The notes beneath the pieces are model-generated. The model did no database searches. It was given only the letters and a program-made list of their open reading frames with translations, and had not been told where the DNA came from. Shown here piece after piece: positions 12,968 through 62,061 of a DNA stretch of 64,000 nt (position 1 is the stretch's first letter; the number at the start of each line of letters is the position of its first letter). This DNA is from Centroberyx gerrardi (lineage: Eukaryota; Chordata; Actinopteri; Beryciformes; Berycidae): the NCBI RefSeq assembly GCF_048128805.1, contig NC_136012.1, forward strand, positions 27,743,082-27,807,081, written 5' to 3'. Position numbers and translations under genes: made by a program.

Positions 12968-15900
12968 TCCAAGTCTACAGTGTCTGCTGTAATCACGGCT
13001 GCACAATTAATCTTGTTTAATTATATTGCGATTTTTTTTAGAATATTATCATATTGGCAATAACGAAGCATTTAATTTCACTTTGAGTGGCAGCTGTTCT
13101 TCAAAATAGTCAATATGTTGATGTGAGATGCAATAAGTGAAATAAAATAATTTTGTCCCTCAAATCATGGAGATTAATAATCGTGATTAATAATTATGAT
13201 CACAGTATTGAGTAATTGATCATCTTTCAGGGTGTTGAAGGCCGATACGAAACCAATGTTTTTGGATTGGAGCTGCCAATATTCAGTGTTTTGTGCCGAT
13301 ATTCAGTGTCTTTGAATTTGACCATTTTCATGCCAAAATACATTACAATTATTCAAATTACTAAGTATTATATATATGTTATTAAGTATTCAGTGTTGGA
13401 AAAGCCTCTGAAACAGCATTTAGAGCATGGGACACTAAAACTCTCCACTGAAACCTAGAATGATGGTCATATCCATCATGTCAGAGGTGGACGGCACTGA
13501 CCGGCTGATATCCGATATTCAATAAAGGGTCAATATCGACATATCTTCACTGTTCTCCCCCAGGAGGAACCAGATTTCCCAGTAGACCTTGAGAACTGCA
13601 TCACTCTGGACGAGCTGGAGGAAGACGAGTCCGATGACCAAGGTCAGCAGAGTTCAGGATTCAATACAACACGATACGATGTGATCAATAAAACTTCAGT
13701 GACAACAAAGTCTGACTGAGCAGAATTCTGTTTATTTCTGAGACACACATCTTTCTAGCGATGCCATTGGCTGCTAGAATGTAAACAACAATTTAAAAAT
13801 GTCATTACAAAGTGACAATAATATAATTTGGATGGAGAGCTTGTGAAACTGTGATGGTCAAGAGTCTCATTAGTGATTACTACAGCAGAATAACATGGAG
13901 CTGATATCACCATTCATGTTCCTGACAGCAGAATAACATGGAGCTGATATCACCATTCATGTTCCTGACTAATGTTTTGGTTTGTCTTTTACAGATGGGA
14001 AAGACAGAGATGAACCCAAGGTAAGGAGGAAATATATACATATTTTAGCAGAGTGGGTTTAGTTAGATTGACTAGACGCGATACTCTCTGCTGACATGAA
14101 GAAACATTTGAGTGATTAGGTGTTTTTGTTGTGTTTGTCCTCCAGTCTCCCTCCAGCAGAGTGATCTACCTCAGAAACCTCCCCCGCCGCTTCTACACCG
14201 ACTCCGACTTTGTGAAAGTCATGAAGGGCTTTGGGAAAGTGGTGCGATATTTCCTCATCCGCAACCGCCAGGAGGTCAGAAGACATCCAGCTGTTATTTT
14301 GTTATGTTATGTTAAATACTATATATTTATACACTGAACAAAAATATAAATGCAACACTTTTGGTTTTGCTCCCATTTTTCATGAGTTGAAATAAAAGAT
14401 CTAAGACTTTCTCTCAAATTTTGTTCACAAATTTGTTTAAATCCGTGTTAGTGAGCACTTCTCTTTTGCCAAGATAATCCATCCACCTGACAGGTGTGGC
14501 ATATCAAGATGCTGATTAAACAGCATGATTATTGCACAGGTGTGCCTTGGGCTGGTCACAACAAAATTTGAGAGAAATAAGCCTTTTGTGTGCATAGAAA
14601 AAGTCTTAGATCTTTTATTTCAACTAATGAAAAATGGGAGCAAAAACAAAAGTGTTGCGTTTATATTTTTGTTCAGTATACGTCTTATGTATTATGCTCA
14701 TAGGGATCATTCAAGTTTCATGTGATCTTTTGGCTGGTATTGGTACCAGAGTCATCATGTTGGTATCCTGACAGCATGCTGTGTGTGTGTGTGTGTTGCA
14801 GGGCTTCATTGAGATGTGCAGCTCTTCAGAGGCTCTCAGAGCCGTCAAGGAGTTCAACTGTAAACCCGTCGAGCTCAACGGCTCCAAGCTCAGCGCACAG
14901 ATTTCCCACAAGTATCAGAGGCTCACAGTAGCGTAAGAACCTCCATCACAAACTGTAATCTGTTGTGTGTTTACTGGATTCATACTCAGGTCTGGAAAAG
15001 GAATTTCATCATTTCCAGATTTTTAAAAGTGTGGAAATAAAGTCTGGAAAAGTATTGTTCAGTTGCAATACACATGAAATTATTTGTCACTGTCTATTCA
15101 CTGTTGTGTCACAAATTGTGATATTAGTTGTGTAGAGTAATGTTCAGCTACAGAGTGATATGGTCACTATAGCTTTTTTGATTTGGACTGGTATGATGAG
15201 TGTATTTTTAAATTAAAATCTTGCCCAGTGGTTAATATATACTGATATCTGTCTGTGCATTCCAAGTGAGACTAAAAACTAAAGTTCTGTTCTGTGCTAC
15301 TTAATTATATTGAATTTTGTTCTGTCGTATGTGATTTTTCATGGCAGGTGGAAGGTGCAGTCGGACTGCGAGTCGGACGAGGAGCAGAGGAGGGAGCGCA
15401 GGAGCCGGGGCGGCAGGAGGAGCGACAGGAGCAGCAAGTCCAAAACCTCCGAGAGGGACGAGTCCGGCAGGAAGAGCTCAGAGAGAGAGGAGACGAGCAA
15501 GAAGTCTGCTGAGAGAAAAGAGTCTGCAAAAAAGACTCCAGAGAAGGAGATAGTAGCTAAAAAGACTCCAGAGAAGGAGATAGTAGCTAAAAAGACTCCA
15601 GAGAAGGAGATAGTAGCTAAAAAGACTCCAGAGAAGGAGGAGTTAACAACTAAAAAGACTCTAGAGAAAGAGTCAGTGGCCAAAAAGACTCCAGAGAAGG
15701 AGATAGTAGCTAAAAAGACTCTAGAGAAAGAGGAGTTAACAGCTAAAAAGACTCTAGAGAAAGAGGAGTTAGCGGCTAAAAAGACTCCAGAGAAGGAACT
15801 AGTGACTAAAAAGACTCTAGAGAAGGAGGAGTTAGCAGCTAAAAAGACTACAGAAAAGGATTTAGCAGCTGAAAAGACTCTAGAGAAAGAGTTACCACGC

Positions 15901-16291
15901 AAAAAGACTCCAGAGAAGGAGTTGGTTAAAACGACTCAAGAGAATGAGACGTTGCTAACTCCAGAGAAGGAGTTAGAAGCTGAAAAGACTTGTGAGAAGA
16001 CGGAGTCAGCAGCTGAAAAGACCCTAGAGAAGGCAGAGTCGGCTAAAAAGACTGCAGAAGATAAGGAGACTCCCAAAGTGCAGGGAGTTAGTCCGGAGGA
16101 GGTGGAGATGGAGGATCCAGAGCCGGAGCAGATCAGAGACGAAGCCACAGACGAGGCAGAGGAGCAGCAGCAGTCTGAACCTGCAGGAGGCGCTGTGGAG
16201 CCGCACAAACCCACTAAACCTGTTGGTAAGAAACCAGTTCAACCTGCCAGTTACAGAGCTGCAGACTCACCTTCTGTCTTTCTTACTGTTT

Positions 16292-16324
<33 letters not shown>

Positions 16325-17783
16325 TACTATAGCAGCACGCAGCAATACAGCAACCGGGCTCAGTCTAGCCATTTAGTCCTTATGGGAGAAAAAAGGAAAT
16401 GTAATTTTTTTGTATTCATTCAGAAGTTTTTGTAAGCCTATATAAAAGCTTATAATAATAATATAAAAATAAACTTTATTTCCAAAGTGCTTTAACAGTC
16501 GCATTAAAGCAAACATGAAACTCCCAAAATGAATTAAAACAAGGCACCATAAGCATAAAAAAAATAATTGTAAAATCAAGAGGATAAAAGACGTCGCATA
16601 AAAGCATTTTGCCTTTGACAGCCAAATACCTGCTCTGACATCACTGATTGGGGCGTGGCCAAAAGTGCAAAATGCTTTAGAGTTTCCACCCACAGACAGC
16701 AGTGCAACAGGGATTTTTTGACCCGTGTGATTTAGTGTTGATTTGCTCTTTAAACTGCCTGTATCTACACTGTGTAAAGCCTGGCTGAGTGCTAGCAGAG
16801 CGGCTGACTGGCTGTGTGTTCTCTGTAGGGGCGGAGTTTGTGCGCCCGGTCGTCGGATACTTCTGTAACCTGTGTCAGGTGATCTACGCCGACGAGGACG
16901 AAGCCAAGCAGCAGCACTGCAGCAGCCTGGAGCACTACCGCAGATACCAGGTCAGCTTCCCCACATCTTCCCCCCAGCTTCCCTCCAGCTTCCCTCCAGC
17001 TTCCCTCCAGCTTCCCTTCAGCTTCCCTCCAGCTTCCCTTCAGCTTCCCTCCAGCTTCCCTTCAGCTTCCCTCCAGCTTCCCTCCAGCTTCCCCCCAGCT
17101 TCCCTCCAGCTTCCCTCCAGCTTCCCTTCAGCTTCCCTCCAGCTTCCCCCCAGCTTCCCTCCAGCTTCCCTCCAGCTTCCCTTCAGCTTCCCTTCAGTCC
17201 AGCATGGAGCCTTCTGTCTTTTCATGTCCAGGGTCAAAGCAAGACACATGGGCAACTTTTTCATGGTATCCAGCGGTTCTTAAAACGGGTGACAAAGTCT
17301 TAAATGATCTAAATTTAAGGCCTTAAAAGTATGAAAACGTCTTAAATAAAAGTTATTTTTCACCATGTAATGTCAGGTTTCTCAGATGAATCCAGAACAG
17401 GTTAGTAGGTAAATCTGCATCTCGTCTGCTTTACTAAACACAGCTAATTAACTATTAATCTCCTGCTGTCCTTCTTATTCTGCCCGTTTTGTTTAGATTC
17501 AGCATTTTCATCAGCTGTTCAGTCTGCTTTTGACAGCTGTGTTTCTTTATTCTGGTTTTTGAACCAAAATAAGGCAGCATTAAAAAGATCTTGGATGGAT
17601 ATAGCGCATTTTGGAAGGAACTTCATTTATATAACTGTATTTTCATGTAGTTTTACAGTCTGATCAGATGCTTGTTAATGCAGGTTTACATCTGCTGTAG
17701 CTCCTCCCACCTGATCCTTATGGAAACCCTTCTCTTCTTCTGTTTGTCAGGAACACACAGGGAAAGACCCGTGGACCAGCTGA
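5740..17783 (+). CDS. matr3l1.2: Matrin-3-like protein, + strand paralogue (three RRMs), 20 coding exons
   Basis: Exons 5740-6768, 7042-7103, 8077-8115, 8290-8372, 8459-8490, 8605-8727, 9080-9205, 9894-10010, 10687-10811, 11019-11275, 11685-11772, 12111-12292, 12418-12617, 13564-13642, 13995-14020, 14146-14274, 14802-14932, 15348-16225, 16829-16950 and 17751-17783 sum to 3861 nt (1286 aa plus TGA), with matching phases at every junction. Order: Ser-rich N terminus with the matrin motif 'LEPDDLAVLAELPEDVLTIE' (about 90-110), zinc finger 1 (CxxC...Hx5H, about 331-358), RRM A (416-498), RRM B (499-579), RS-rich and acidic linker, 'ENCITLDELEED', RRM D (857-943), Lys/Glu repeats, zinc finger 2 (about 1246-1275) and tail EHTGKDPWTS. 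Matrin-3 proteins bind RNA and DNA in the nucleus and regulate splicing. The choice of paralogue symbol is uncertain. The exon-4 donor may instead be at 8354, 18 nt earlier and also in frame. Confidence 0.88.
8605..10811 (+). other. RRM A and RRM B exons of the + gene
   Basis: Four exons (8605-8727, 9080-9205, 9894-10010, 10687-10811) each encode half of an RRM. The introns fall just before the 'AFVEL' strand in both domains, as in matrin 3. RRM A carries 'LRKLTEPFGKIVKVIMF' and RRM B 'LLSIAKRFGSPLYTLF'. The second-half exons are 126 and 125 nt, exactly the sizes in the - strand paralogue. Confidence 0.85.
11457..11545. repeat. Fish interspersed repeat fragment
   Basis: 'AAGATTGCACTTTATTGATC' followed by 'CCCTGGGGGAAATTCAGGTG' is a block common across teleost genomes, likely a LINE or SINE tail. 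It lies in the intron between exons 11019-11275 and 11685-11772. Confidence 0.6.
12870..12967. repeat. Perfect (AGT)n trinucleotide repeat, about 32 units
   Basis: An uninterrupted AGT run of about 96 bp in the intron after exon 12418-12617. Its purity suggests recent expansion and probable length polymorphism. Confidence 0.97.
13755..13975. repeat. Dispersed repeat with an internal 43-bp tandem unit, 2 copies
   Basis: Starts 'GCCATTGGCTGCTAGAATGT' and ends with two tandem copies of a 43-bp unit containing 'GCAGAATAACATGGAGCTGA'. The same element at 45298-45640 has five copies of that unit. Confidence 0.85.
14146..14932 (+). other. RRM D exons of the + gene
   Basis: Exons 14146-14274 (129 nt) and 14802-14932 (131 nt) encode an RRM with 'SRVIYLRNLPRRFY' (beta 1/RNP2 region) and 'GFIEMCSSSEALRAV'. 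Both exon lengths equal those of the fourth RRM in the - strand paralogue and resemble matrin-3 RRM2. Only 125 bases of intron separate this domain from the preceding 26-nt exon (13995-14020), leaving no space for an RRM C. Confidence 0.87.
14332..14678. mobile_element. Tc1/mariner-type MITE with long inverted ends
   Basis: The left end CACTGAACAAAAATATAAAT and the right end (reverse complement) TACTGAACAAAAATATAAAC form inverted repeats that continue for about 80 bp ('GCAACACTTTTG', 'GCTCCCATTTTTCAT', 'AAATAAAAGATCTAAGAC'). TA dinucleotides flank both ends, as expected for Tc1/mariner insertion. No transposase is present. It sits inside the intron that splits RRM D. Confidence 0.9.
15348..16225 (+). 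other. Lys/Glu-repeat exon of the + gene (coding minisatellite)
   Basis: An 878-nt exon. After an Arg/Ser-rich start (about 15360-15520) come roughly 17 tandem 10-11 residue units related to KKTPEKEIVA and KKTLEKEELTA (about 15522-16065), encoded by 30- and 33-bp DNA repeats. Several are identical at DNA level (15535-15625). The end is acidic ('EVEMEDPEPEQIRDEATDEA'). The - strand paralogue has a plain Glu-rich exon in this position. The repeats keep frame because indels occur in multiples of 3. Confidence 0.9.
16829..16950 (+). other. Zinc finger 2 exon of the + gene
   Basis: Encodes 'GYFCNLCQVIYADEDEAKQQ' then HCSSLEH, a matrin-type CxxC...Hx5H finger. It matches the finger encoded at 22125-22240 on the other strand (shared HCSS and AxxxHC spacing). 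It ends in phase 0 at CAG|GTCAGC, exactly where an intronic minisatellite begins. Confidence 0.9.
16955..17200. repeat. 10-bp minisatellite (CAGCTTCCCT) at the start of the last intron
   Basis: About 20 or more tandem units of CAGCTTCCCT/CAGCTTCCCC/CAGCTTCCTT type. The array begins within a few bases of the donor of exon 16829-16950, whose own intron start reads GTCAGCTTCC. The reading frame of the exon stays open through the array to 17283, coding a Ser/Phe/Pro/Leu-rich repeat if the intron were retained. Confidence 0.95.
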
Positions 17784-18888: not shown

Positions 18889-18957
18889 TTACGCAGAAGA
18901 AGTCTTTTTCACTTTCTTGCTGCTCTGTGCTTTGGCCTGTTCCTTCTCCAGATGTTT
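18889..18957 (-). other. Last coding exon of the - matrin-3-like gene
   Basis: The 69-nt exon encodes [20 protein letters not shown] plus two residues and TAA. It is preceded by the acceptor TTCTCTTCCAG. The sequence resembles the basic C-terminal tail of matrin 3. It is too short for ORF finders and lies 3.2 kb from the preceding exon. Confidence 0.85.
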
Positions 18958-21900
18958 CTGGAAGAGAAGGAACATGAAGGAAGGTTATGTTGCAGCAGGA
19001 AAAACACATCCAGGCACTCTTCCCATACAAAAAGTAAAAAGTAGGGCTGTGAATCAATAAAAAAAAATCTACTTATCAATCGCACAATTTGCTGTGATTA
19101 ATCAATCTTTTTGAAGCTTGTAATCATAGATATTTAAATGTAGAATCACCAAATTAATGTAGAATCAACACAAAGGAAGTTTATTTTAAATCAAACACTA
19201 TTGTTTAATGGCATCTTTTAATTGAAAACACAGACTCTCTTGTGAACTACAGATCAGTCTATCAGAACCAATTGCGTTTTTTTGTTTTTTTTGTTACGAG
19301 TTTAACATTTCAAATGAATAGCAAAAATGAACGCGTTAATTATCACAGCCCTAGTAAAAAGCCTTTATTATTTATTGGTTAACGCATACTAGGGTTGGGC
19401 GATATGTCAAAATTTTCCTATCGGCTACCGTCAGCCCAACAACCGGCGATTGCCGATATAGTCGCCGGGTGTCAGAGCGGCTAAGATTGTCACTACAATG
19501 TGAATAGCTGGTCCACCTTAAAGGTCAGTCCACCTTAAGTGAGCCTGGTCAGGTTAGCCATTGTCGCTAACTTCGGGGCTAACCCCCTTCACTTTAATGA
19601 AAAACTCAACTTCTAGTATGTAACGTTAGCTAACTAGAGAAAATGTCCGCTAGCCGTGATGCTAATTTTCGCTATGTTCAACTCCATTGACTTATGCTAA
19701 AAACGTTAGCGATCTAAAAGTCCGCTAGCTGCAACGCTAATTAGTGCCAAATCCCATTTGATTATGCTAAAGTGTTAGTGACTTAAAAACTGGATCTGAA
19801 ATGGGTTTGTCGCTGCCCGATCTGAGTTGAACATACCGAAAACTAGCATCACGGGCTAGAAGTGTGTGACGGTGAGGTCACACACACGCATATATTTATG
19901 TTATATATAACTGGTTCTTCGGATCACGTCGGAAATCAAGTGTGTTTATGTTTATGGTTGTGTTAAACGCCACTCTGGAAGGCGGAGTGAAAAGGCAACT
20001 GTGATAGAGAGGGTGGAGACGTGATGTTTCAATACGGGATAACGGCGCCCAACTCCAACAGCCAGTTCCTATTCGCGCACGCTTTGAATTGCGCTTTACA
20101 GGTTAATTATTTACCATTAAATTAGCAAAATAAAATGACAAAAATCGCCCAAAAATGGATGGACTCAGCCCATCGCCGATATATTCGTCCTATCGCCCAA
20201 CCCTAACGCATACACGTTAAAAATGTTTTAAAAGCGTTGATGCGTTGCAGCCAAAACCACGGGTGAATTTTGACGCCAGTAAGGAAGTGGCTGAAAGCAG
20301 CAGTTCCTCTAACGTCCGCTAGAGTCCGGCTCCAAAAAGACGCCAAACTCCATGCAAGTCAAAAGACCGCAACCCAACTTCTCACTCAAAATATAGTCAA
20401 TACATTTTTTCGACAAGAGGTTTTGGTCTCAGTAGCTAGTTTCACTTCTTCTAATGTGTGTCCTTATGGCGATTTTCAAAATAATTTCGTTATTAACGGG
20501 ATATAACGGTTATAAAACGGGGTTATTTTTCGAGTGATTGACAGGTCGCCGATTCTGGACCAATAGCAGGCGGCGCTGTGGTCAACCCTCAGCTTCGCTC
20601 CGGCTCCAAAAAATTTCAACATGGCGGCGCTCGTAAACCCAAACGTTTGGCTTCAAAACGGCCCTTCAGAAACCTGTGGGTGACGTCACACTCACTACTC
20701 CATCTGTTTATACAGTCTGTGGCTGCAGCACACAGCCTTCCTCACAGTGCACCTAAACACAGTGATTCTGATGAGCAGCAGTCTTCCTCACAGTGCACCT
20801 AAACACAGTGATTCTGATGAGCAGCAGTCTTCCTCACAGTGCACCTAAACACAGTGATTCTGATGAGCAGCAGTCTTCCTCACAGTGCACCTAAACACAG
20901 TGATTCTGATGAGCAGCAGTCTTCCTCACAGTGCACCTAAACACAGTGATTCTGATGAGCAGCAGTCTTCCTCACAGTGCACCTAAACACAGTGATTCTG
21001 ATGAGCAGCAGTCTTCCTCACAGTGCACCTATATAAACTGATTCTGATGAGCAGCAGTCTTCCTCACAGTGCACCTATATAAACTGATTCTGATGAGCAG
21101 CAGTCTTCCTCACAGTGCACCTATATAAACTGATTCTGATGAGCAGCAGTCTTCCTCACAGTGCACCTAAACACAGTGATTCTGATGAGCAGCAGTCTTC
21201 CTCACAGTGCACCTATATAAACTGATTCTGATGAGCAGCAGTCTTCCTCACAGTGCACCTAAACACAGTGATTCTGATGAGCAGCAGTCTTCCTCACAGT
21301 GCACCTATATAAACTGATTCTGATGAGCAGCAGTCTTCCTCACAGTGCACCTAAACACAGTGATTCTGATGAGCAGCAGTCTTCCTCACAGTGCACCTAT
21401 ATAAACTGATTCTGATGAGCAGCAGTCTTCCTCACAGTGCACCTATATAAACTGATTCTGATGAGCAGCAGTCTTCCTCACAGTGCACCTAAACACAGTG
21501 ATTCTGATGAGCAGCAGACTTCCTCACAGTGCACCTAAACACAGTGATTCTGATGAGCAGCAGTCTTCCTCACAGTGCACCTATATAAACTGATTCTGAT
21601 GAGCAGCAGTCTTCCTCACAGTGCACCTAAACAGTGATTCTGATGAGCAGCAGTCTTCCTCACAGTGCACCTATATAAACTGATTCTGATGAGCAGCAGT
21701 CTTCCTCACAGTGCACCTAAACACAGTGATTCTGATGAGCAGCAGTCTTCCTCACAGTGCACCTATATAAACTGATTCTGATGAGCAGCAGTCTTCCTCA
21801 CAGTGCACCTAAACACAGTGATTCTGATGAGCAGCAGTCTTCCTCACAGTGCACCTATATAAACTGATTCTGATGAGCAGCAGTCTTCCTCACAGTGCAC

Positions 21901-24900
21901 CTAAACACAGTGATTCTGATGAGCAGCAGTCTTCCTCACAGTGCACCTATATAAACTGATTCTGATGAGCAGCAGTCTTCCTCACAGTGCACCTAAACAC
22001 AGTGATTCTGATGAGCAGCAGTCTTCCTCACAGTGCACCATATAAACAGTGATTCTGATGAGCAGCAGTCTTCCTCACAGTGCACCTAAACACAGTGATT
22101 CTGATGAGCAGCAGTCTTCCTCACCTGCAGCTTGTCATAGTGCGCCTGGCTGCTGCAGTGAACTCTCTTAGCCGTTTCTTCATTGGAGTAAAACAGGAAA
22201 CAGACTCGGCAGTAATAACCCATCTTCACGTGTTCCACACCTGCAGCGGCGACACGTTTACAGACAGAAACATCAGATGAAACATTTACAGACAGAAACA
22301 TCAGATGAAACATTTACAGACAGAAACATCAGATGAAACATTTACAGACAGAAACATCAGATAAACTTCATGATCCTGTGGGGAGTCGAGTCGCTGCAGC
22401 AGCAAACAGTCTCAGGATACAGCAGGACAGAAGAGAGAGAACAGCACACTGGGGCGACTAACACTAGAATGTACTGAGTCGAAATATGAGAGCAAAGTGT
22501 GAAATATGAATAGCAGCAGGTATGTTGTTATTCATATTTCATAAACTTAGTTTCATGTCATGATTTTGCCACTTAATCTTTCGTTTATGTTTTTACTTTT
22601 TAACCACTTTCTCCTTTGAACACTTGCTGATTTTTATCTTTTATTTTACTATTCTTGTTTTTATGCCTTTTTATGAAACTCTTTGTAAACTCTGCTTTTA
22701 GATAACTACTTCCACTTCTGCTACTACTACTACTACTATTACACCTACTATTACTTCTACTATACCCACTACTACTGCTACTACTATTACTGCTACTATA
22801 AGTACTACTATGGATACTGCTGCTACTTCTACTTTTACTATAACTACTACTACTTCTATTGCTACTACTACTACTACTTGAATTTCTGATAGCAGCTCCC
22901 TCATATTCATGATAAGCTGTGAATTTGCTTCCCTGTACATTTTCTAACAAAATATTCTATTACAATGTAGAGTTACTAGAGCACAAAACCAACAGAATAA
23001 AACAACAGTGTGATGTGTTCAGATCATGTTCCTCACCGATGGGCCTGTTGGGCTCGTAGGGAGCGAGCGGCAGACAGGCGGCGCTGGGTTTGGTGTCGGG
23101 GGGCGGAGCCTCCGTCTGTCCGTTCTGACCGGCAGACGCCGCCTCCTCCTTCTCCTGCTTCACCTCCTGCAATTTGCACAATTTTTTTTTTTTAAAAACC
23201 TGCTGCAAAACCTTCCATTTTTGTTCACACTGAAAGAGTGTCAATGGTGTGTGTATTTTAATTTTGGTGTATGTTTACAGTCAATTAGTGCTGACACGCT
23301 CAGTCAATTAATCATTTTGTTGATCAACAGAAAATTAATCTATTACAATTCTGACAATCGATTCCTCGTTTTAGTCATTTATCAAGTAACAATACCAAAC
23401 ATTTGTTTTTTACAGCTTCATAAATTCTAATATTTGCTGCTTTTCTTTGTTTCATCTCATTATTAAATGAAGACTTTGTGTTTTCTGGCTGCTGGTCAGA
23501 CTGAGGAAGAAATCTGAAGAATCACTTTGGACTCTGGGAACTGTGATGGACATTTGTCATTATTTTTCACATTTTATAGACTAAATGAATAGTTGATTAA
23601 TCGAAAAAATAATTGATTGATAATGAAAAAAATTAATAAGCCTATATGAGTGTTTTCATCCTCCTCCTCCATGTGTCACTCACAGCATCGCAGCTCTTCT
23701 TGTCCGAGCCGCTCGGCTGATCAGACGCTTCAGGAATCGTCTCCTTCGTCTCTTTCTCTGCCGACTCTTCCTCGCTCTTCTGCTCAGCGCCGGTCGCCTC
23801 GCTGCTCTCCTCCTCCTCCTCCTTCACGTCCGTCGTCGTCTTCTCCTCCTCCTTCTCCTCCTCCTCCTCCTCCTCCTCCTCTGCCTCTTCCTCCTCCTCC
23901 TCCTTGGCCTTCTTGGTTGGAGGTTCGTCGGTGTGTTTGGAGGATTTGCCCGGCGTTCCGCTGCTGTCTCTCTTCGACGGCTTCTTGTCTTCAGGCAGCG
24001 TGGGTCGCCGATGTCTGGACGGACAGACAGAAGTGGCAATTCTTCTCAGCACAAACTAGGCTTAGACAGAAATATTGGTTTGCTGATATTGTCCTTTATT
24101 CCAAATTTATTGTAGAATTGATTAATACTACGCTGGCTGTGTATGAGAAGACCTAAACTGATTGACATTTGATCAGAAAGTATGCATCAATATGTTTATT
24201 ATTTTTATCATCAGGGTTTCACTGGAGAGTTTTAGTGTCCCATGATGGTCTGAATGCAGTTAGTGGGCAGCAGCAGTAGGGAAGGAAACTAACTTCTGTC
24301 TCGTAAAACCAAAACTTCACCGGCCACTTTCACTGTTTTAGTAGCCACCCAGATGTTCAGAGCAGAAAAAGTCTCTGGTGTGTTTTCTCACCCATATTTG
24401 AGCTGTTTGTACTTCCTGCTGACGTAGACGTTCAGACGCCTCCCTTGGATTTTCGGCGGGCTCACTTTGTAATCTTCGGCCATTTTCTCCGCGTCTTCTG
24501 CGTTCTCCATCTCAACGAAACACTGGAAAACACAAACAAACGTCAGCAGAGAATTTTAAAACTTCCCGTCGGCCGTCGCTGGGTAGAAGAGGTTTTGCTG
24601 CAGTACCTCTCTCTTGATCCGGTTGAGGAAATACTTCCTCACTTTCCCAAAAGGCTCCGCCAGCTTCAGGACCGTCTCGTCCGAGTATTTGATGTTGGGG
24701 ATTTGACCGATGTACACGACTCGACTGGAGCCGCACTGCAGGAGAAACACACCGGATTTAACGGATGACAGATTAAATGACAACAATAAGGTCAATAAAT
24801 ATGGAAACGAACCCGTAGGCTCACAACTTCAGAGACAAGACGGTACGAAAACAGGTAGAAATGGTTAAATAGCTAAAAAGAACAAAAAAAACAACAACAT

Positions 24901-27900: not shown

Positions 27901-30900
27901 GGCCCCGCCCACGCCTCCGTCTGCCTCCTCGGTGATGTCATCACCACCCGGAACCTGCATACATTTCGTATATTTTCATTTTCAGACGCAGTTACTTCCA
28001 ATCAGTTAAATCCCATCAAAAAGTCTGTCTTTCGACAATTAAGAACAGAAGGCTTATTTTCTCATTGGCTCCCATGTATGTTTGAAATTGGAATAGTGGG
28101 GTTTCATGTAAATATGCACAAATACATATTTTTCATTTGTTTCTTCTGTCTCAGTATGTTCTACTGCTATTGTTTTGCACCCCCTCGTACAGCTGTAGCT
28201 CATTTCTGTCTTTCATGCTTTTCTACATAGCATGTTCTGTGTTTAAATGGTCGGTTATGTTATTTTTAAACAGGTTCATCCAGTATGGGTTTCTGAAGGC
28301 AAATAATGATAATTTTGGACTGAAACTGCCAATAGCCGATATTCATCGCTGGTTTCAAGCCAAAAAATTTGTATTCTGTGTTTCCCAAGAATTATATTGT
28401 CGTCAAGAGTGGAAAGCATCTGAAATATCACGGGACATTGAAACTCTCCAATGAAACTCAGGATAATAATAATTATTATAATAAGTAGAATATTTGCATA
28501 CTTGTGTGGAATCCAATCAAAATGTCTCAGAATCAGTTCAGGTTCAGTTCTCCCCATACACAACCAGTGTAGTGTTGATCAACTCTACAATAAATGTGGA
28601 ATCAATCAAACTGCATCATATCATCAGATTAGAGGTGGATGATAATGACTGGCCCAGATCTGATTTTTATTAAAAGGCCAATATCAGCCCAATATATTGA
28701 CAAACCGTTCTATTAAACCTAACCCCAGTTCAAATAACTTCCATTTGCTGTATTCTTATTTATATTCTATTTTTCTTTGCTGTATCTTATAACATTTTGC
28801 TGCAGAAACATCCCAAGCGGATCATTACAGTTTTATCTTGTACCAATTGCATCGGATCAATCATTTATCTTCCCCACTCATTGGTTGTTACTTATGATCT
28901 GGATTATTTATTGTTAGCTTGGTATTTTATTTTCCTGTTGTTTTTAGTTATCTTATGTTTTATTTTATTTGTTGTCTTCTGTTTTTTGTGAAGCACTTTG
29001 AAAAGGTGCTATATAGATAAAGTTTATTATTATTATTCTATTGTTATCGTCATCTTTTCCTCACCTTCTCCGGAGCGCGGGACTCCTGGACCGGCTCAGT
29101 GGCGGACTCTGCTGGCTCCGCCTCCTCCGCCGGCGTCGAGGCTCGGTCCTCCTCCTTCCCCTCCTCGTCTCCGTCTGTTCCCTGCTCCTCCTCCTCCTCC
29201 TGCTCCTCCTCCTCCACCTGCATCTCCTCCTCCTCCTCCTCTTCCTCTCCTCCGTCCTCTCCCTCCATCACCCCGGCCACCTCCTCCTCTGACCCCGGCT
29301 TCTCCTCCGCCGCGGGCTTGGCCTCCTCCTTCTTCTTCTCCTCCTTGGTCTTGGCGCTGGAGGAGGAGGTGGATTTGGAGGCGGAGCTCTTGGAGGAGGA
29401 TTTGGTTCCTGAGCTGGAGGAGGAGGAGGCAGTCGCTCCGCTGCTCCTCCGCCCGCGGCTGTTTCCTCCAAAATTGCCCTGGCCCAGTCTGCGGCTCACA
29501 CTGAAACACATTTATTCACTTATTCATTTGTGTCATGGCTTGTACATTACATTACACTGATGGTTAACTTTGGTTGAACCCCGAAATCCGGTCGGAGGAA
29601 ACTTACACCGATGGAATGAAGAAAGTAATAAGTTAATCAATAAAAAAAAGTGGGAGACAGGACTTTGACAAAGCAGATTTTGCCAATATATAAAAAAACA
29701 AGTCTCTTTTTTTTTTGCCTATTTACAATTATTGGTAAACTTATTATTTTCTTCATTCCATCAGCATAAGTTTCCTCCGACTGGATTTCAGCATTTCATT
29801 TTTTTTCAACATTTCATTTTTTTTCTAATATATTGCCAGAATTTGCTTTGTTTGCGTTTGTTCACATTATAACAATATATCTAAATGGCAGTGTAAGATG
29901 TGCAAGTCCTACATACCAATACTGAACAACAATATTTATATATATATAAATATTATATATATTTCTACATGAGACATTTTTTTTTGTGAATTGCCAAATT
30001 TTTCGACTCCTGGATATTATTAAACTCATTTTCCAGGCTTGAGTTGAAAACCTGCTATCATGTTAGCCTGTTCTCATGTTGACTGAAACTATGAAGCTGT
30101 ATTATTATTATTATTGTACAGTATGCATTTTATTTTAATAGGTGATTCCACTTCTACCATGAGATTTAATTGCATGTTGAAATAACTGCTGTCTTCTGTG
30201 TTTTTAAGCTGCAAAATAAATCAATGACATTAAAGTTAGATAATCTTGTTTCCTCTCTGTTTGTTTTGTTCTCTCTCTTCACTACTCGTTTCTCTGCTCA
30301 GTTGTACCTACCAGGCATTAATATTGCATTAACTTGGTGAATAACGGTGATGTGGATTCTCTGGGGCGTTTCCTGAAGCTCTGTACTCACTTGAGAGTCT
30401 TGTACTTGGTGCAGATGTTGAGGCGGATCGGCCGGCCTTTGATGGTGAGCGGGTTCACGGTGTAATACTTCACCAGCATCTCCGCGTCCTCCGGGGTTCC
30501 CAGCTGGACGAACGCCTGGATGAGACAGACAGGAGCAGAGTGAGGAAACGTTTGGCTGCTTTTCAAGGGAGCAGAGTGAAGTGAAAGCGTATTAATTATC
30601 CTCCAGAGGGCTCTCTCCTGCTCCTGTGGTGGAGAAATTGGTCTCTCTCCTCTTCTACGATGGATTTCTCCCTGTATGATTGTTGACTGGTGCAAAATGA
30701 CGGCTCTAGAAAGAAGCCCTCGCTCTTTGATTCTGAGGGACTGACACCAAAACCTGACGTTTACCGCTGAGGTTTTACATCCTGAAACATTTGTGTTTTG
30801 GGGTGGATTTTTCTTTAATGATTCCTGTGGAGAAGTTTGGTATTTTCAGCCTCTGATGTCAGTAAAGTCGAGGTGTTTGTGTCGCGGTACAAATGTGTAT

Positions 30901-42894: not shown

Positions 42895-45771
42895 ATGAAA
42901 GACCCAAGTCGCAGCAACAACAGCGCCCCAAACATGACAATTAGCAACGACGTCATCCTGACCAACCAGTTCAACTTAGAGGACAATCCCTTCGCCGAGT
43001 ACATGTGGATGGAAAACGAGGAGGAATTCAACAGACAGGTGAGTCAAACACACTCAGACCTGCAGGCTGTTTTCCTGATCATCACCGCCACACCTCAGGA
43101 GCAGGACAGGCAGGGAACTGTTTTGTCAGAATGAGACATGTTCAAGTTGAAGTTTATTATCCGTTTATCATGTGCATATCTCACAGGACTTTACAAAGAA
43201 ACAGCCTGACTAGATCCAACTGATCAACAATCAATTGTAGAACAGAATGATGTAAGACAAACACAAAGAAGCAGAACAAAGCACAAGACACACAATAGCA
43301 GATTTTAGACATACTGTAGTCGCCGGTGCAGAGGTGTGACCAAGTCAACTTTGCTCAAATCCCAAGTCAGTCTCAAGTCTTGAGGCACAAGTCTCAAGTC
43401 AAGTCTCAAGTCTAAATGTAGAACAGCAAGTCAAGTCAGAATAAATCAAGAGTCCAGTATCAATTTAATATCTTAAAGAAAACTAAATATCTAGGACTTT
43501 TCAATGCAATATGGTTTTAATAGGATAAAAACTTGGTAAGAGCATCATGAGTTTGATTTCTATAATCAGTTTCAACTTCAATAAATTCAATCATTCCATA
43601 CAAATTCAGAAAACAGAATTTAAATTCAGTCGTCCGCTGGAACAAATCTCATCACTTTCAATCTAAGTCATTTACACAAACACAAGATCTCAAGTCAAGA
43701 CTTTAGAAACCTTTTCAAGTCATCAAAGTACAAGTCCCAAGTCACCAGAACCCAAGTCAAGTCTCAACAAGTCTTCTCTTCATCCAGATGTGGCCACTGC
43801 TCCATTTACCACCACACTTCACAAACACAGCTTCCTAACTGTTTAACAGTGTTAAACATCACTGACCCGCTCAGACACGAAGCTCAGCTGTGAGCGTCAC
43901 TTGTGAAAGAGAGAGCGAGAGGTCAAAGGGCACAAGGAGCGTGCAACACACAGTTAGACAACAGAGCACTATTTCTAGTTTGCCTGTTATGGTTTTGTGT
44001 TTGTGTTCTCCTCAGAGATATTACTGCACAACACTCTTCATGATGGGTCTATAACTGGGACATGGTATTTTCTAGAGGTTTAACCTATTTATATCACAGT
44101 AGATAGATAGTAGGCCGATACTTCAGTATTATGGTTTATCATCTTTCAGTGGAATCATATGGTGACGATGTGGTGATTTTGGGATATCGCGACGCACAAT
44201 TCTGCTGTCTGATGATAACAAGCACAATTTATTTAAACACTCTGACAAAATGAGGTATGGTAGGAGTATTATTTGAAAATTTCAGTTTTGTTTGACATCA
44301 CACCAAACATTTGGTTCAATGCCATGAACATTCATTTGATTATTTAACACGTGATTTTGCATACGTGAGCCATATTGTGATGTATAGCAATATTAAAAAA
44401 AAGCCTCACGATTATTGTAATATTGATTTCAACCATATCGCCCAGCCCTATATCACAGTTAGGTCGGATCAATAACTGATATGGTTCAGTCGGTTGCAGC
44501 CGGGGTTGTAAACGACCAGCAGCCTTCAACCAAACGCTGGTAACATTTACCGGAGTCGACTTTACATGGAACCAGACATCTGGAGTTCCATTCTACTCTG
44601 AACTCTAGTTGGCTGCTAAAATAGTGAAAGTGTCCAACAGAAGTTAGTTTACAGAATCGTCTTTCTGTCCCCAAACTGCTGTCAGCAGTCAGTCCAGCAG
44701 ACAAACCTCACTTGGCTCACAGCAAGGTCAGACAGCAGTGAACTGGTGAACTGGTGAACTGGTGAACAGGTCTGCACAATAAATTGTTTATGAAGATCAT
44801 GTTTTTAGAAAATATCCGACCCTCGCTCTCCATCAGTCCACAGTGTGGATGGGACAATAGCTGGTATTACTGTATATATTGCGGTAAAAAACAATAACTG
44901 TAATGACACCGCCACTCATTTTTCTTACTGTGAACACCATGAAAACCATCTGTCAGCACTGAGGTTTTATTTTCCCCAAAAGGAGAAGCGCTCCAATAGA
45001 TTTTTACATTCATGTTGCTGACTGAGTTAAAGTGGATGCAGACCAGCAGCTCTTTATTTGAGGCGCATTTGCCTTTTATTTTTAGATGTTATTTGTATTT
45101 TTATTTGTGTTGTTTAAAACTCTCCTTACAGTTTCTGTAAGCTAAACCAGCATTTTATCATTTAAGTGTAATTTTAATTACATTTAACTTTAATTTTAAT
45201 TACATAAAACAGTCAAATGTCTTGTGATTGATATGATAAATTAGTTTTTAAGTAATTGAAGCAAATTACAGATTTCTGAGTCACAAATCTTTCCAGCGAT
45301 GCCATTGGCTGCTAGAATGTAAACAACAATTTAAAAATGTCGTTACAAAGTGACAATAATATAATTTGGATGGAGAGCTTGTGAAACTGTGATGGTCAAG
45401 AGTCTCATTAGTGATTACTACAGCAGAATAACATGGAGCTGATATCACCATTCATGTTCCTGACAGCAGAATAACATGGAGCTGATATCACCATTCATGT
45501 TCCTGACAGCAGAATAACATGGAGCTGATATCACCATTCATGTTCCTGACAGCAGAATAACATGGAGCTGATATCACCATTCATGTTCCTGACAGCAGAA
45601 TAACATGGAGCTGATATCACCATTCATGTTCCTGACACAACATACAGATTGACACATTTTTGTATTGTGATATATTGAGTTTCGATATTTTGTCCCATCC
45701 CTGGTTTCTATAATCCAGTTCTTTGAGTTGACGTTATTTGAGATGCTCAACATGAATCTGTTCCTGTCTTC

Positions 45772-61273: not shown

Positions 61274-61407
61274 GTAGGTTCACCGTGCGCGTCTCCGCTG
61301 CATCACGTTTCCAGTTTAACGGTGCACATCCTGCTGCAGCTCCGGCTCTGGTTTTAACCCGCTCTCCTCTCTTCTTTCCTCCAGAATAAAGCAACATGTG
61401 CACCGCC

Positions 61408-62061
61408 ATGGAGACCGTCTACTCCGACATCGACAGCAACAGCTGCGACTTCTCCTTCCCGCACACCGACGACGACGAGGACTCCCGCGGCAGCCTGCGC
61501 TCCGCCTCCCCGGCCAGCTCGCCGCTCGGCCCGGAGCCCGGCAGCACCGAGCAGCAGCAGCAGCAGAAGAAGCGGCGCCGGGGCCGCCGGGGCGACGCCA
61601 CCGTGCATGTGGTGAAGAAGAACCGGCGGATGAAAGCCAACGACCGGGAGAGGAACCGGATGCACAACCTGAACGACGCCCTGGACGCGCTCCGCGGGGT
61701 CCTGCCGGCCTTCCCGGACGAGACCAAGCTCACAAAAATCGAGACTCTCCGCTTTGCGCACAACTACATCTGGGCGCTGTCCGAGACCATCCGCATCGCC
61801 GACCTGCAGGGGGGCAAGGCGGGCCGGGGCGGCGGGGCCGGGGACGCGCCCCTGGTGCTCCCCCCGGGGCTCGGCCGCATCGGCGACGCCCCGAGCCCCG
61901 GCAGCGAGGCCTGCTCCTGGAGCTCCAGCGGCTCGTCGTCGTCCTCCTCCCCGGCGTACTGCACCTCCAGCCCGGGCAGCCCGGCGGTGGCGGAGGACTA
62001 CGGCTTCCTGCAGCCGGACGCGGTGTACGGCTTCCACAGCTTCGTGCCGGGCGTCTACTGA
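61408..62061 (+). CDS. neurog1: Neurogenin 1, proneural bHLH transcription factor
   Basis: A single coding exon of 217 residues from ATG 61408, or 221 from the in-frame ATG at 61396. The second ATG has the better Kozak context (CACCGCCATGG) and gives METVYSD, the usual fish neurogenin start. The bHLH spans about residues 74-130: basic '[17 protein letters not shown]', then '[20 protein letters not shown]' and '[20 protein letters not shown]', diagnostic of neurogenins. Flanks are a Gln/Lys/Arg-rich stretch before the basic region and a Gly- and Ser-rich C terminus ending FHSFVPGVY. It acts as an E-protein heterodimer on CANNTG E-boxes to specify neurons, including cranial sensory neurons. The exon is far more GC-rich than the surroundings. 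Neurog2/3 are less likely given the length and N terminus. Confidence 0.95.

What the first reader, a model, noticed from the sequence alone, without database searches (positions are those of the whole stretch)
20741..22125. A 30-copy minisatellite seeded at a 5' splice site forms an array of decoy donors
The 46-bp array ends exactly at the donor of the zinc finger 2 exon of the - gene. Read on the minus strand, the intron starts GTGAGGAAGACTGC and almost every later unit repeats GTGAGGAAGACTGC. The spliceosome therefore meets about 30 near-copies of the real donor, each 46 nt further into the intron. Copy number could tune splicing or U1 occupancy. A read-through into the first unit meets a stop after about 12 codons.
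Basis: partly seen in the sequence, partly recalled or inferred. Interest (0 to 1): 0.7.

Follow-up and report, generated by a model that had tools for sequence, protein, structure and literature searches.

The report
Minisatellite grown from a splice donor
In what looks like a fish matrin-3-like gene, the start of the last intron has been copied about 30 times in a row, giving a line of weakened look-alike splice sites; a human gene carries an array of the same kind, and this genome carries at least one other.

Summary
Confirmed, and less exotic than it looks. A 46-bp array (20733-22124, minus) starts at the first base of the last intron of a matrin-3-like gene: real donor CAG|GTGAGG, then 30 copies ACT|GTGAGG. 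Only the intronic half of the donor is copied, so each decoy is far weaker (11.3 vs 5.4 bits by a recalled matrix; U1 duplex -11.8 vs -4.9 kcal/mol). The decoys still outscore 6 of 27 donors inferred in the window's two matrin-3-like genes, so low-level use is plausible; any use gives a stop after 12 codons. Human ABCA7 has the same anatomy (PMC5954066, passages): one-unit retention about 2%, independent of length, though total expression fell with length. New here is recurrence. The tail-to-tail paralog has an unrelated 11-bp array at the homologous donor. Three of six ZF2 donors have a tandem repeat within 5 nt, one a plain AC repeat. A spastin exon runs into 22 CAG|GTGAGT decoys that outscore its real donor. 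Best reading: donors sometimes give birth to minisatellites, mostly tolerated; regulation by copy number is untested.

The parts
22125..22240 (-). ZF2 exon of the matrin-3-like gene; ends AAGCTGCAG
   Evidence: translation [38 protein letters not shown]; Pfam zf-U1 only below cut-off, E=0.16
22119..22127 (-). real 5' splice site CAG|GTGAGG
   Evidence: 11.3 bits with a recalled vertebrate matrix; U1 duplex -11.8 kcal/mol; position checked
20733..22124 (-). 46-bp minisatellite, about 30 units, starting at intron base +1; 30 decoys ACT|GTGAGG
22257..22366 (-). 28-bp x 4 array in the upstream intron just before the same exon; units carry a branch-point-like CTGAT and a pyrimidine tract
   Evidence: TRF; sequence; the branch-point reading rests on a recalled consensus
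18889..18957 (-). coding part of the last exon, [22 protein letters not shown]
16829..16950 (+). ZF2 exon of the tail-to-tail matrin-3-like paralog; ends CCAG|GTCAGC
   Evidence: matches the minus-strand ZF2 exon at E=3.6e-5
16953..17197 (+). 11-bp x 22 array starting at intron base +3 of the paralog's homologous intron; unit CAGCTTCCCTC (pyrimidine tract + CAG, no donor)
23678..23686 (-). inferred real donor GCT|GTGAGT of the same gene, also with T at -1
   Evidence: phase-0 join read

Best explanation
The array is a young minisatellite born from a duplication that took in the first bases of the intron at the ZF2 donor, then spread by slippage or unequal exchange, largely in 46- and 92-bp (A/B) steps. 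The spliceosome mainly uses the 22124 donor, because only it keeps the exonic CAG that pairs with U1. The 30 ACT|GTGAGG copies are weak competitors: rarely used, and at most slowing removal of this last intron a little. Any transcript that uses a decoy, or keeps the intron, ends in [12 protein letters not shown] in place of the normal 22-residue C-terminus, with ZF2 intact. By the 50-55 nt rule (recalled) decoy 1 should escape NMD, decoy 2 is borderline (54 nt), and later ones should be degraded. Shown: sequence, register, scores, reading frame, recurrence at other donors. Inferred: birth mechanism, age, donor choice, RNA fate.
For: Array starts exactly at +1. Units are nearly identical apart from the A/B types and three variant units, which suggests a young array. 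Decoy 5.39 vs real 11.3 bits; U1 duplex -4.9 vs -11.8. Stop-to-junction distances 7, 54, 100 nt and rising (first seven decoys). The same anatomy recurs in this genome at spastin, and a different array sits at the paralog's donor. Human ABCA7 is a published precedent with rare unit retention.
Against: The decoys are not dead: six of 27 donors inferred in the window's two genes score lower, and three (23683, 10812, 11773) also have T at -1. Thirty weak sites together might matter. In ABCA7 total expression falls with array length. No RNA data; donors are inferred from reading frame and homology. The scoring matrix and U1 sequence are recalled. No other species or individual was available to date the array.
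Confidence: 0.7

Rival explanations
1. Functional decoy array: U1 on many decoys competes with or detains the real donor, so copy number sets retention of the last intron and matrin-3 level.
For: Decoys above 6 of 27 inferred donors. In ABCA7 longer alleles have lower expression and more skipping of the next exon (PMC5954066). Decoy 5' splice sites can hold an intron back while hardly being spliced: OGT decoy exon (PMC12017769, passages). In spastin the decoys score above the real donor.
Against: All 30 decoys lack CAG. GTGAGG is intact in 31 of 31 copies, but the array has so few variants that this is no sign of selection. In ABCA7 unit retention itself did not follow length.
Confidence: 0.15
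2. Coincidence: an ordinary intronic minisatellite whose edge happens to lie on a donor.
For: 0 of 8 complex arrays in a 200-kb sample had a donor-like edge, and 1 of 24 places began at a homology-confirmed coding donor, so most arrays have nothing to do with donors.
Against: The unit itself is made of the intron start. The pattern recurs: 2 of 12 window arrays (the window was chosen for this), 3 of 6 ZF2 donors including one plain AC repeat, spastin.
Confidence: 0.1
3. Assembly artefact: copy number is wrong, or the array was expanded or collapsed in assembly.
For: Near-identical 46-bp units are hard to assemble; no reads could be examined.
Against: An ordered A/B variant map with private variants is what real arrays show; one match in the assembly.
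Confidence: 0.05

Closest known systems
ABCA7 intron 18 VNTR, human (PMC5954066; passages read)
   Same: Array flush against an exon; first two bases of the array (GT) are the exon's donor; many copies (about 12 to about 427 reported); keeping one unit gives an early stop
   Different: 25-bp unit; polymorphism and splicing measured there, not here; its length effect is skipping of the next exon and lower expression, whereas here the next exon is terminal; no sequence relation was looked for
CBS 31-bp VNTR, human, c.1444_1467+7(16_21) (PMC2630376; passages read)
   Same: Tandem array across an exon end and intron start
   Different: By its coordinates the CBS unit holds 24 exonic and 7 intronic bases; the matrin-3 unit holds no clear exonic part. 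The C5 locus (L049) resembles CBS more
Decoy exons in retained introns, OGT and SF3B1 (PMC12017769; passages read)
   Same: Non-productive 5' splice sites inside an intron
   Different: Those are exon-like units with 3' and 5' sites, and for OGT the function was tested; here a tandem array with no tested function
Intronic minisatellites of Sparus aurata growth-hormone gene (named in PMC3045353, passages)
   Same: Polymorphic tandem repeats in fish introns
   Different: Relation to splice sites not checked

Membership tests
donor-seeded intronic VNTR (ABCA7 type) | array begins at the first intron bases and the unit contains the intronic part of the donor | tested here: met
donor-seeded intronic VNTR (ABCA7 type) | length differs between individuals | not testable with these tools
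   one assembly only
donor-seeded intronic VNTR (ABCA7 type) | decoy donor used at low level | not testable with these tools
   no RNA data
exon/intron-spanning VNTR (CBS type) | unit carries the end of the exon | tested here: not met
   units read GGTGCACT|GTGAGG where the exon reads AAGCTGCAG|GTGAGG; TGCA is the shared stretch (by eye)
decoy-exon intron retention (OGT type) | decoy 5' and 3' splice sites both recognised | tested here: inconclusive
   most units have TTTAG|G or TATAG|G besides GTGAGG; acceptors were not scored and there are no RNA data
MATR3 gene family (host gene) | RRM pair related to Matrin 3 | tested here: met
   Matrin 3 PDB hits E=6.9e-17 and 2.1e-12; Pfam RRM_1 E=4.9e-9
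MATR3 gene family (host gene) | two matrin-type zinc fingers | tested here: inconclusive
   fingers read by eye; Pfam zf-U1 below cut-off for ZF2, and no family for the first-finger exon ORF

The most novel reading that the evidence does not exclude
In this genome, 5' splice sites are a recurrent birthplace of minisatellites, so it holds a natural dosage series of tandem donors: weak decoys at matrin-3, and 22 decoys at spastin that score above the real donor. Their copy number sets how fast, or how correctly, the adjoining intron is removed.
Probability: 0.15. Interest if true: 0.75.

Novelty: new member of a known kind. Interest (0 to 1): 0.42.

Why it matters
How the spliceosome picks one donor among many is mostly studied in minigenes with a few sites (recalled). 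Here nature offers 30 weak copies (matrin-3) and 22 strong copies (spastin) behind real donors in one genome. RNA-seq of this species would show directly whether position, exonic context or strength decides. The recurrence also suggests that VNTRs like the one at human ABCA7 are not one-off accidents, and that splice donors may seed tandem repeats.

Tried and rejected
Selection on decoys: GTGAGG is intact in all 31 copies, but the array has only three variant units apart from the A/B types, so conservation says nothing.

Genome-wide enrichment as proof of donor seeding: tandem CAGGTGAG patterns outnumber the backward control 2212 to 96 and tandem AGGTGAGT 262 to 71. I do not use this as proof: one array gives many matches, and in the 200-kb sample CAGGTGAG alone is about 3 times commoner than its backward form (9 vs 3). 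A first count was inflated by fetched arrays and was dropped.

Array edges. One search printed 100 rows of 2212; I grouped them by eye into 24 places and fetched all 24. By my reading of TRF, 14 of the 24 are arrays and 10 are scattered motif copies (one, L042, inside a collagen-like exon). One (spastin, L023) begins at a donor of a homology-confirmed coding exon. The others were judged by eye on three-frame translations; L027 and L034 have open frames up to the edge, but Pfam found nothing for either and the PDB nothing for L034 (L027 was not run against the PDB), so they are undecided. For L026 the edge lay outside the piece. One search printed 100 rows of 262, 15 loci; 14 were examined (three of them shared with the first list; C7:13592552 was not fetched; the edge of L055 lay outside the piece). 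Three begin at a donor-like exon end: spastin twice (second, inverted copy on C3) and C5:36403.2k, whose exon has an open frame and splice consensus but no hit in Pfam or the PDB, so it is not confirmed as coding.

A pattern search for tandem AGGTAAGT did not complete, so GTAAGT-seeded arrays were not surveyed. RNA structure: GTGAG can pair with CTCAT of the same unit; weak, not pursued. Pfam found no zinc-finger match above cut-off. Papers: 'matr3l1.1' gave none; minisatellite + splice site + intron + teleost gave five, and in the one I opened (PMC3045353) none of the passages shown described an array at a donor; minisatellite + splice donor + exon-intron boundary gave one, on ABO, seen only in the listing. 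Further searches gave the ABCA7, CBS and OGT papers used here; the rest of their hits I saw as listings. MIR137HG VNTR (PMC6692358, passages) lies in an exon and was set aside.

Full report
On the minus strand of 20733-22124 lies a 46-bp minisatellite of about 30 units (TRF score 2397) that begins at the first base of an intron. There are 31 GTGAGG sequences: the real donor at 22124 and 30 later copies; 28 of 30 intervals are 46 nt. Units are of two types, A (CACTGTGTTTAGG) and B (CAGTTTATATAGG), often alternating, in the order AxABABABABxBAABBABABABBBAAAAAA. That is the mosaic one expects of unequal exchange or slippage, partly in 92-bp steps. A search of the 779-Mb assembly with the array gave one match, itself (the tool skips common words). 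I take the species to be a teleost fish from gene content (recalled); no call named it.

The host is a matrin-3-like gene. Its second RRM pair hits solved Matrin 3 domains at E=6.9e-17 and 2.1e-12 and Pfam RRM_1 at 4.9e-9. The exon before the array (22240-22125) encodes a Cys2His2 finger, [38 protein letters not shown], called ZF2 by analogy with MATR3 (recalled; Pfam's zf-U1 match is below cut-off, E=0.16). The intron is the last one, 3,167 nt, and joins in phase 0 to [22 protein letters not shown] at 18957. The array makes up 44% of it.

The decoys are near-copies on one side only. The real site is CAG|GTGAGG; all 30 copies are ACT|GTGAGG. For scale, I inferred 27 donors in the two genes of this window from reading frame and homology (14 on minus; 13 on plus). 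Six of them score below the decoy (27420, 26322, 24606, 11276, 12618, 14933), and three have T at -1 (23683, 10812, 11773). So the decoys are weak but within the range of sites that these genes seem to use. About 4.5% of all 7,494 GT in the window score at least as high.

The stop lies 7 nt before the junction for decoy 1, 54 nt for decoy 2 and 100 nt or more for later ones. By the usual 50-55 nt rule (recalled) decoy 1 should escape NMD and most others should not. ZF2 stays whole; only the 22-residue tail is lost.

Tandem repeats sit at other donors of this genome. The paralog on the plus strand, tail to tail with this gene, has its own array at the homologous donor: 11-bp units, 22 copies, starting at +3 of the intron after CCAG|GTCAGC. 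Its units are unrelated and carry no donors, so it is not a decoy-donor array; each unit is a pyrimidine tract plus CAG. A genome search with the ZF2 exon found six homologous exons, the weakest at E=0.07. I read the donors of all six. Three have a tandem repeat within 5 nt (46-bp, 11-bp, and a plain AC repeat on contig C23, GAG|GTACACAC...), three have none.

Searching the assembly for tandem donor words led to a spastin exon on contig C3 (peptide hits Spastin in the PDB at E=4.1e-11). It ends LRPE|GTGAGT and runs straight into a 40-bp array with 22 further CAG|GTGAGT. Those score 12.5 bits, above the real donor's 11.46, and the next exon [23 protein letters not shown] follows at about C3:1907. 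As at matrin-3, a second array (31-bp, about 8 copies) sits just before the same exon. Another candidate, C5:36403.2k, has a unit that spans an exon-like end and intron start, but its exon has no homology hit and is unconfirmed.

How common is this? All 24 places behind the 100 rows printed were fetched; 14 are arrays, and one begins at a homology-confirmed coding donor; two more have open frames at the edge without any hit. Of 15 loci behind the 100 rows printed, 14 were examined: three begin at an exon-like donor (two copies of spastin, one unconfirmed). In 200 kb of unselected sequence none of eight complex arrays did; in the window, which was chosen for this, two of twelve did. If one assumes about 200,000 donors in the genome, a given array edge would fall exactly on one by chance in the order of 3 times in 10,000 (my estimate, not computed in a call). 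So the association looks real but concerns a minority of arrays. The raw excess of tandem donor words over backward controls is not used as evidence, for the reasons given under Tried and rejected.

Known relatives. Human ABCA7 has a 25-bp VNTR whose first two bases are the exon 18 donor. The paper reports unit retention of about 2% (2 +/- 1, as I read the sentence) independent of length, exon 19 skipping that rises with length, and total expression that falls with length (PMC5954066, passages read). Human CBS has a 31-bp VNTR named c.1444_1467+7, which places it across an exon end (PMC2630376, passages). Decoy 5' splice sites that hold an intron back while hardly being used are described for OGT (PMC12017769, passages). 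The finding is therefore a new member of a known kind, with two additions: tandem repeats at homologous donors of paralogs, and a spastin array whose decoys should be at least as strong as the real site.

Judgement: the array is real, very probably donor-born, and young. The likeliest state is that the 22124 donor does nearly all the work. A regulatory role is possible and easily tested, but nothing here shows it.

Noticed in passing
window 16953-17197 (+): 11-bp x 22 array starts at +3 of the homologous last intron of the plus-strand matrin-3-like paralog; units are acceptor-like (pyrimidine tract + CAG).
   Followed up: partly
L023 / L046 / L047 (G000:C3:1-6000) and L057 (C3:106700-107500): Spastin exon followed by 22 CAG|GTGAGT decoys in 40-bp units and preceded by a 31-bp array; a second, inverted copy of this exon and its arrays lies about 105 kb away on the same contig.
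   Followed up: partly
L049 / L059 / L060 (G000:C5:36401.3-36404.7k): 30-bp units made of 17 bases of an exon-like end plus 13 bases of intron start, with CAG|GTGAGT; the exon has no homology hit.
   Followed up: partly
L061 (G000:C23:3888000-3889300): A third ZF2 homolog has a TC repeat up to its acceptor and an AC repeat from +3 of its donor.
   Followed up: partly
window 22257-22366 (-): 28-bp x 4 array directly upstream of the ZF2 exon, so the exon is flanked by arrays on both sides, as in spastin.
   Followed up: partly
L027 (G000:C2:38168300-38169100) and L034 (G000:C3:100800-101400): Two further CAGGTGAG arrays with open reading frames up to their edge; Pfam gave no family, so whether they start at exon donors is undecided.
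   Followed up: partly
window 32285-24391 (-): The gene seems to hold two pairs of RRM-like exons (four RRMs); the first pair was read by eye only, and Pfam found nothing in the ORF at 30387-30845.
   Followed up: no
window 13882-13969 and 45420-45637: The same 43-bp tandem unit, 2 and 5 perfect copies, at two places 31 kb apart; perhaps a mobile or recently copied satellite.
   Followed up: no
window 15529-16058 (+): 30-bp repeat in an open frame (KKTPEKE-like) of the paralog.
   Followed up: no
L051 (G000:C6:34347500-34348200): A 20-bp array with AGGTGAGT-bearing units begins shortly after the stop codon of an ORF ending ..RRCEVW*, which looks like an M13 peptidase (recalled).
   Followed up: no
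window 61390-62061 (+): bHLH gene (Pfam HLH E=5.8e-19), probably neurogenin-like by recall.
   Followed up: no
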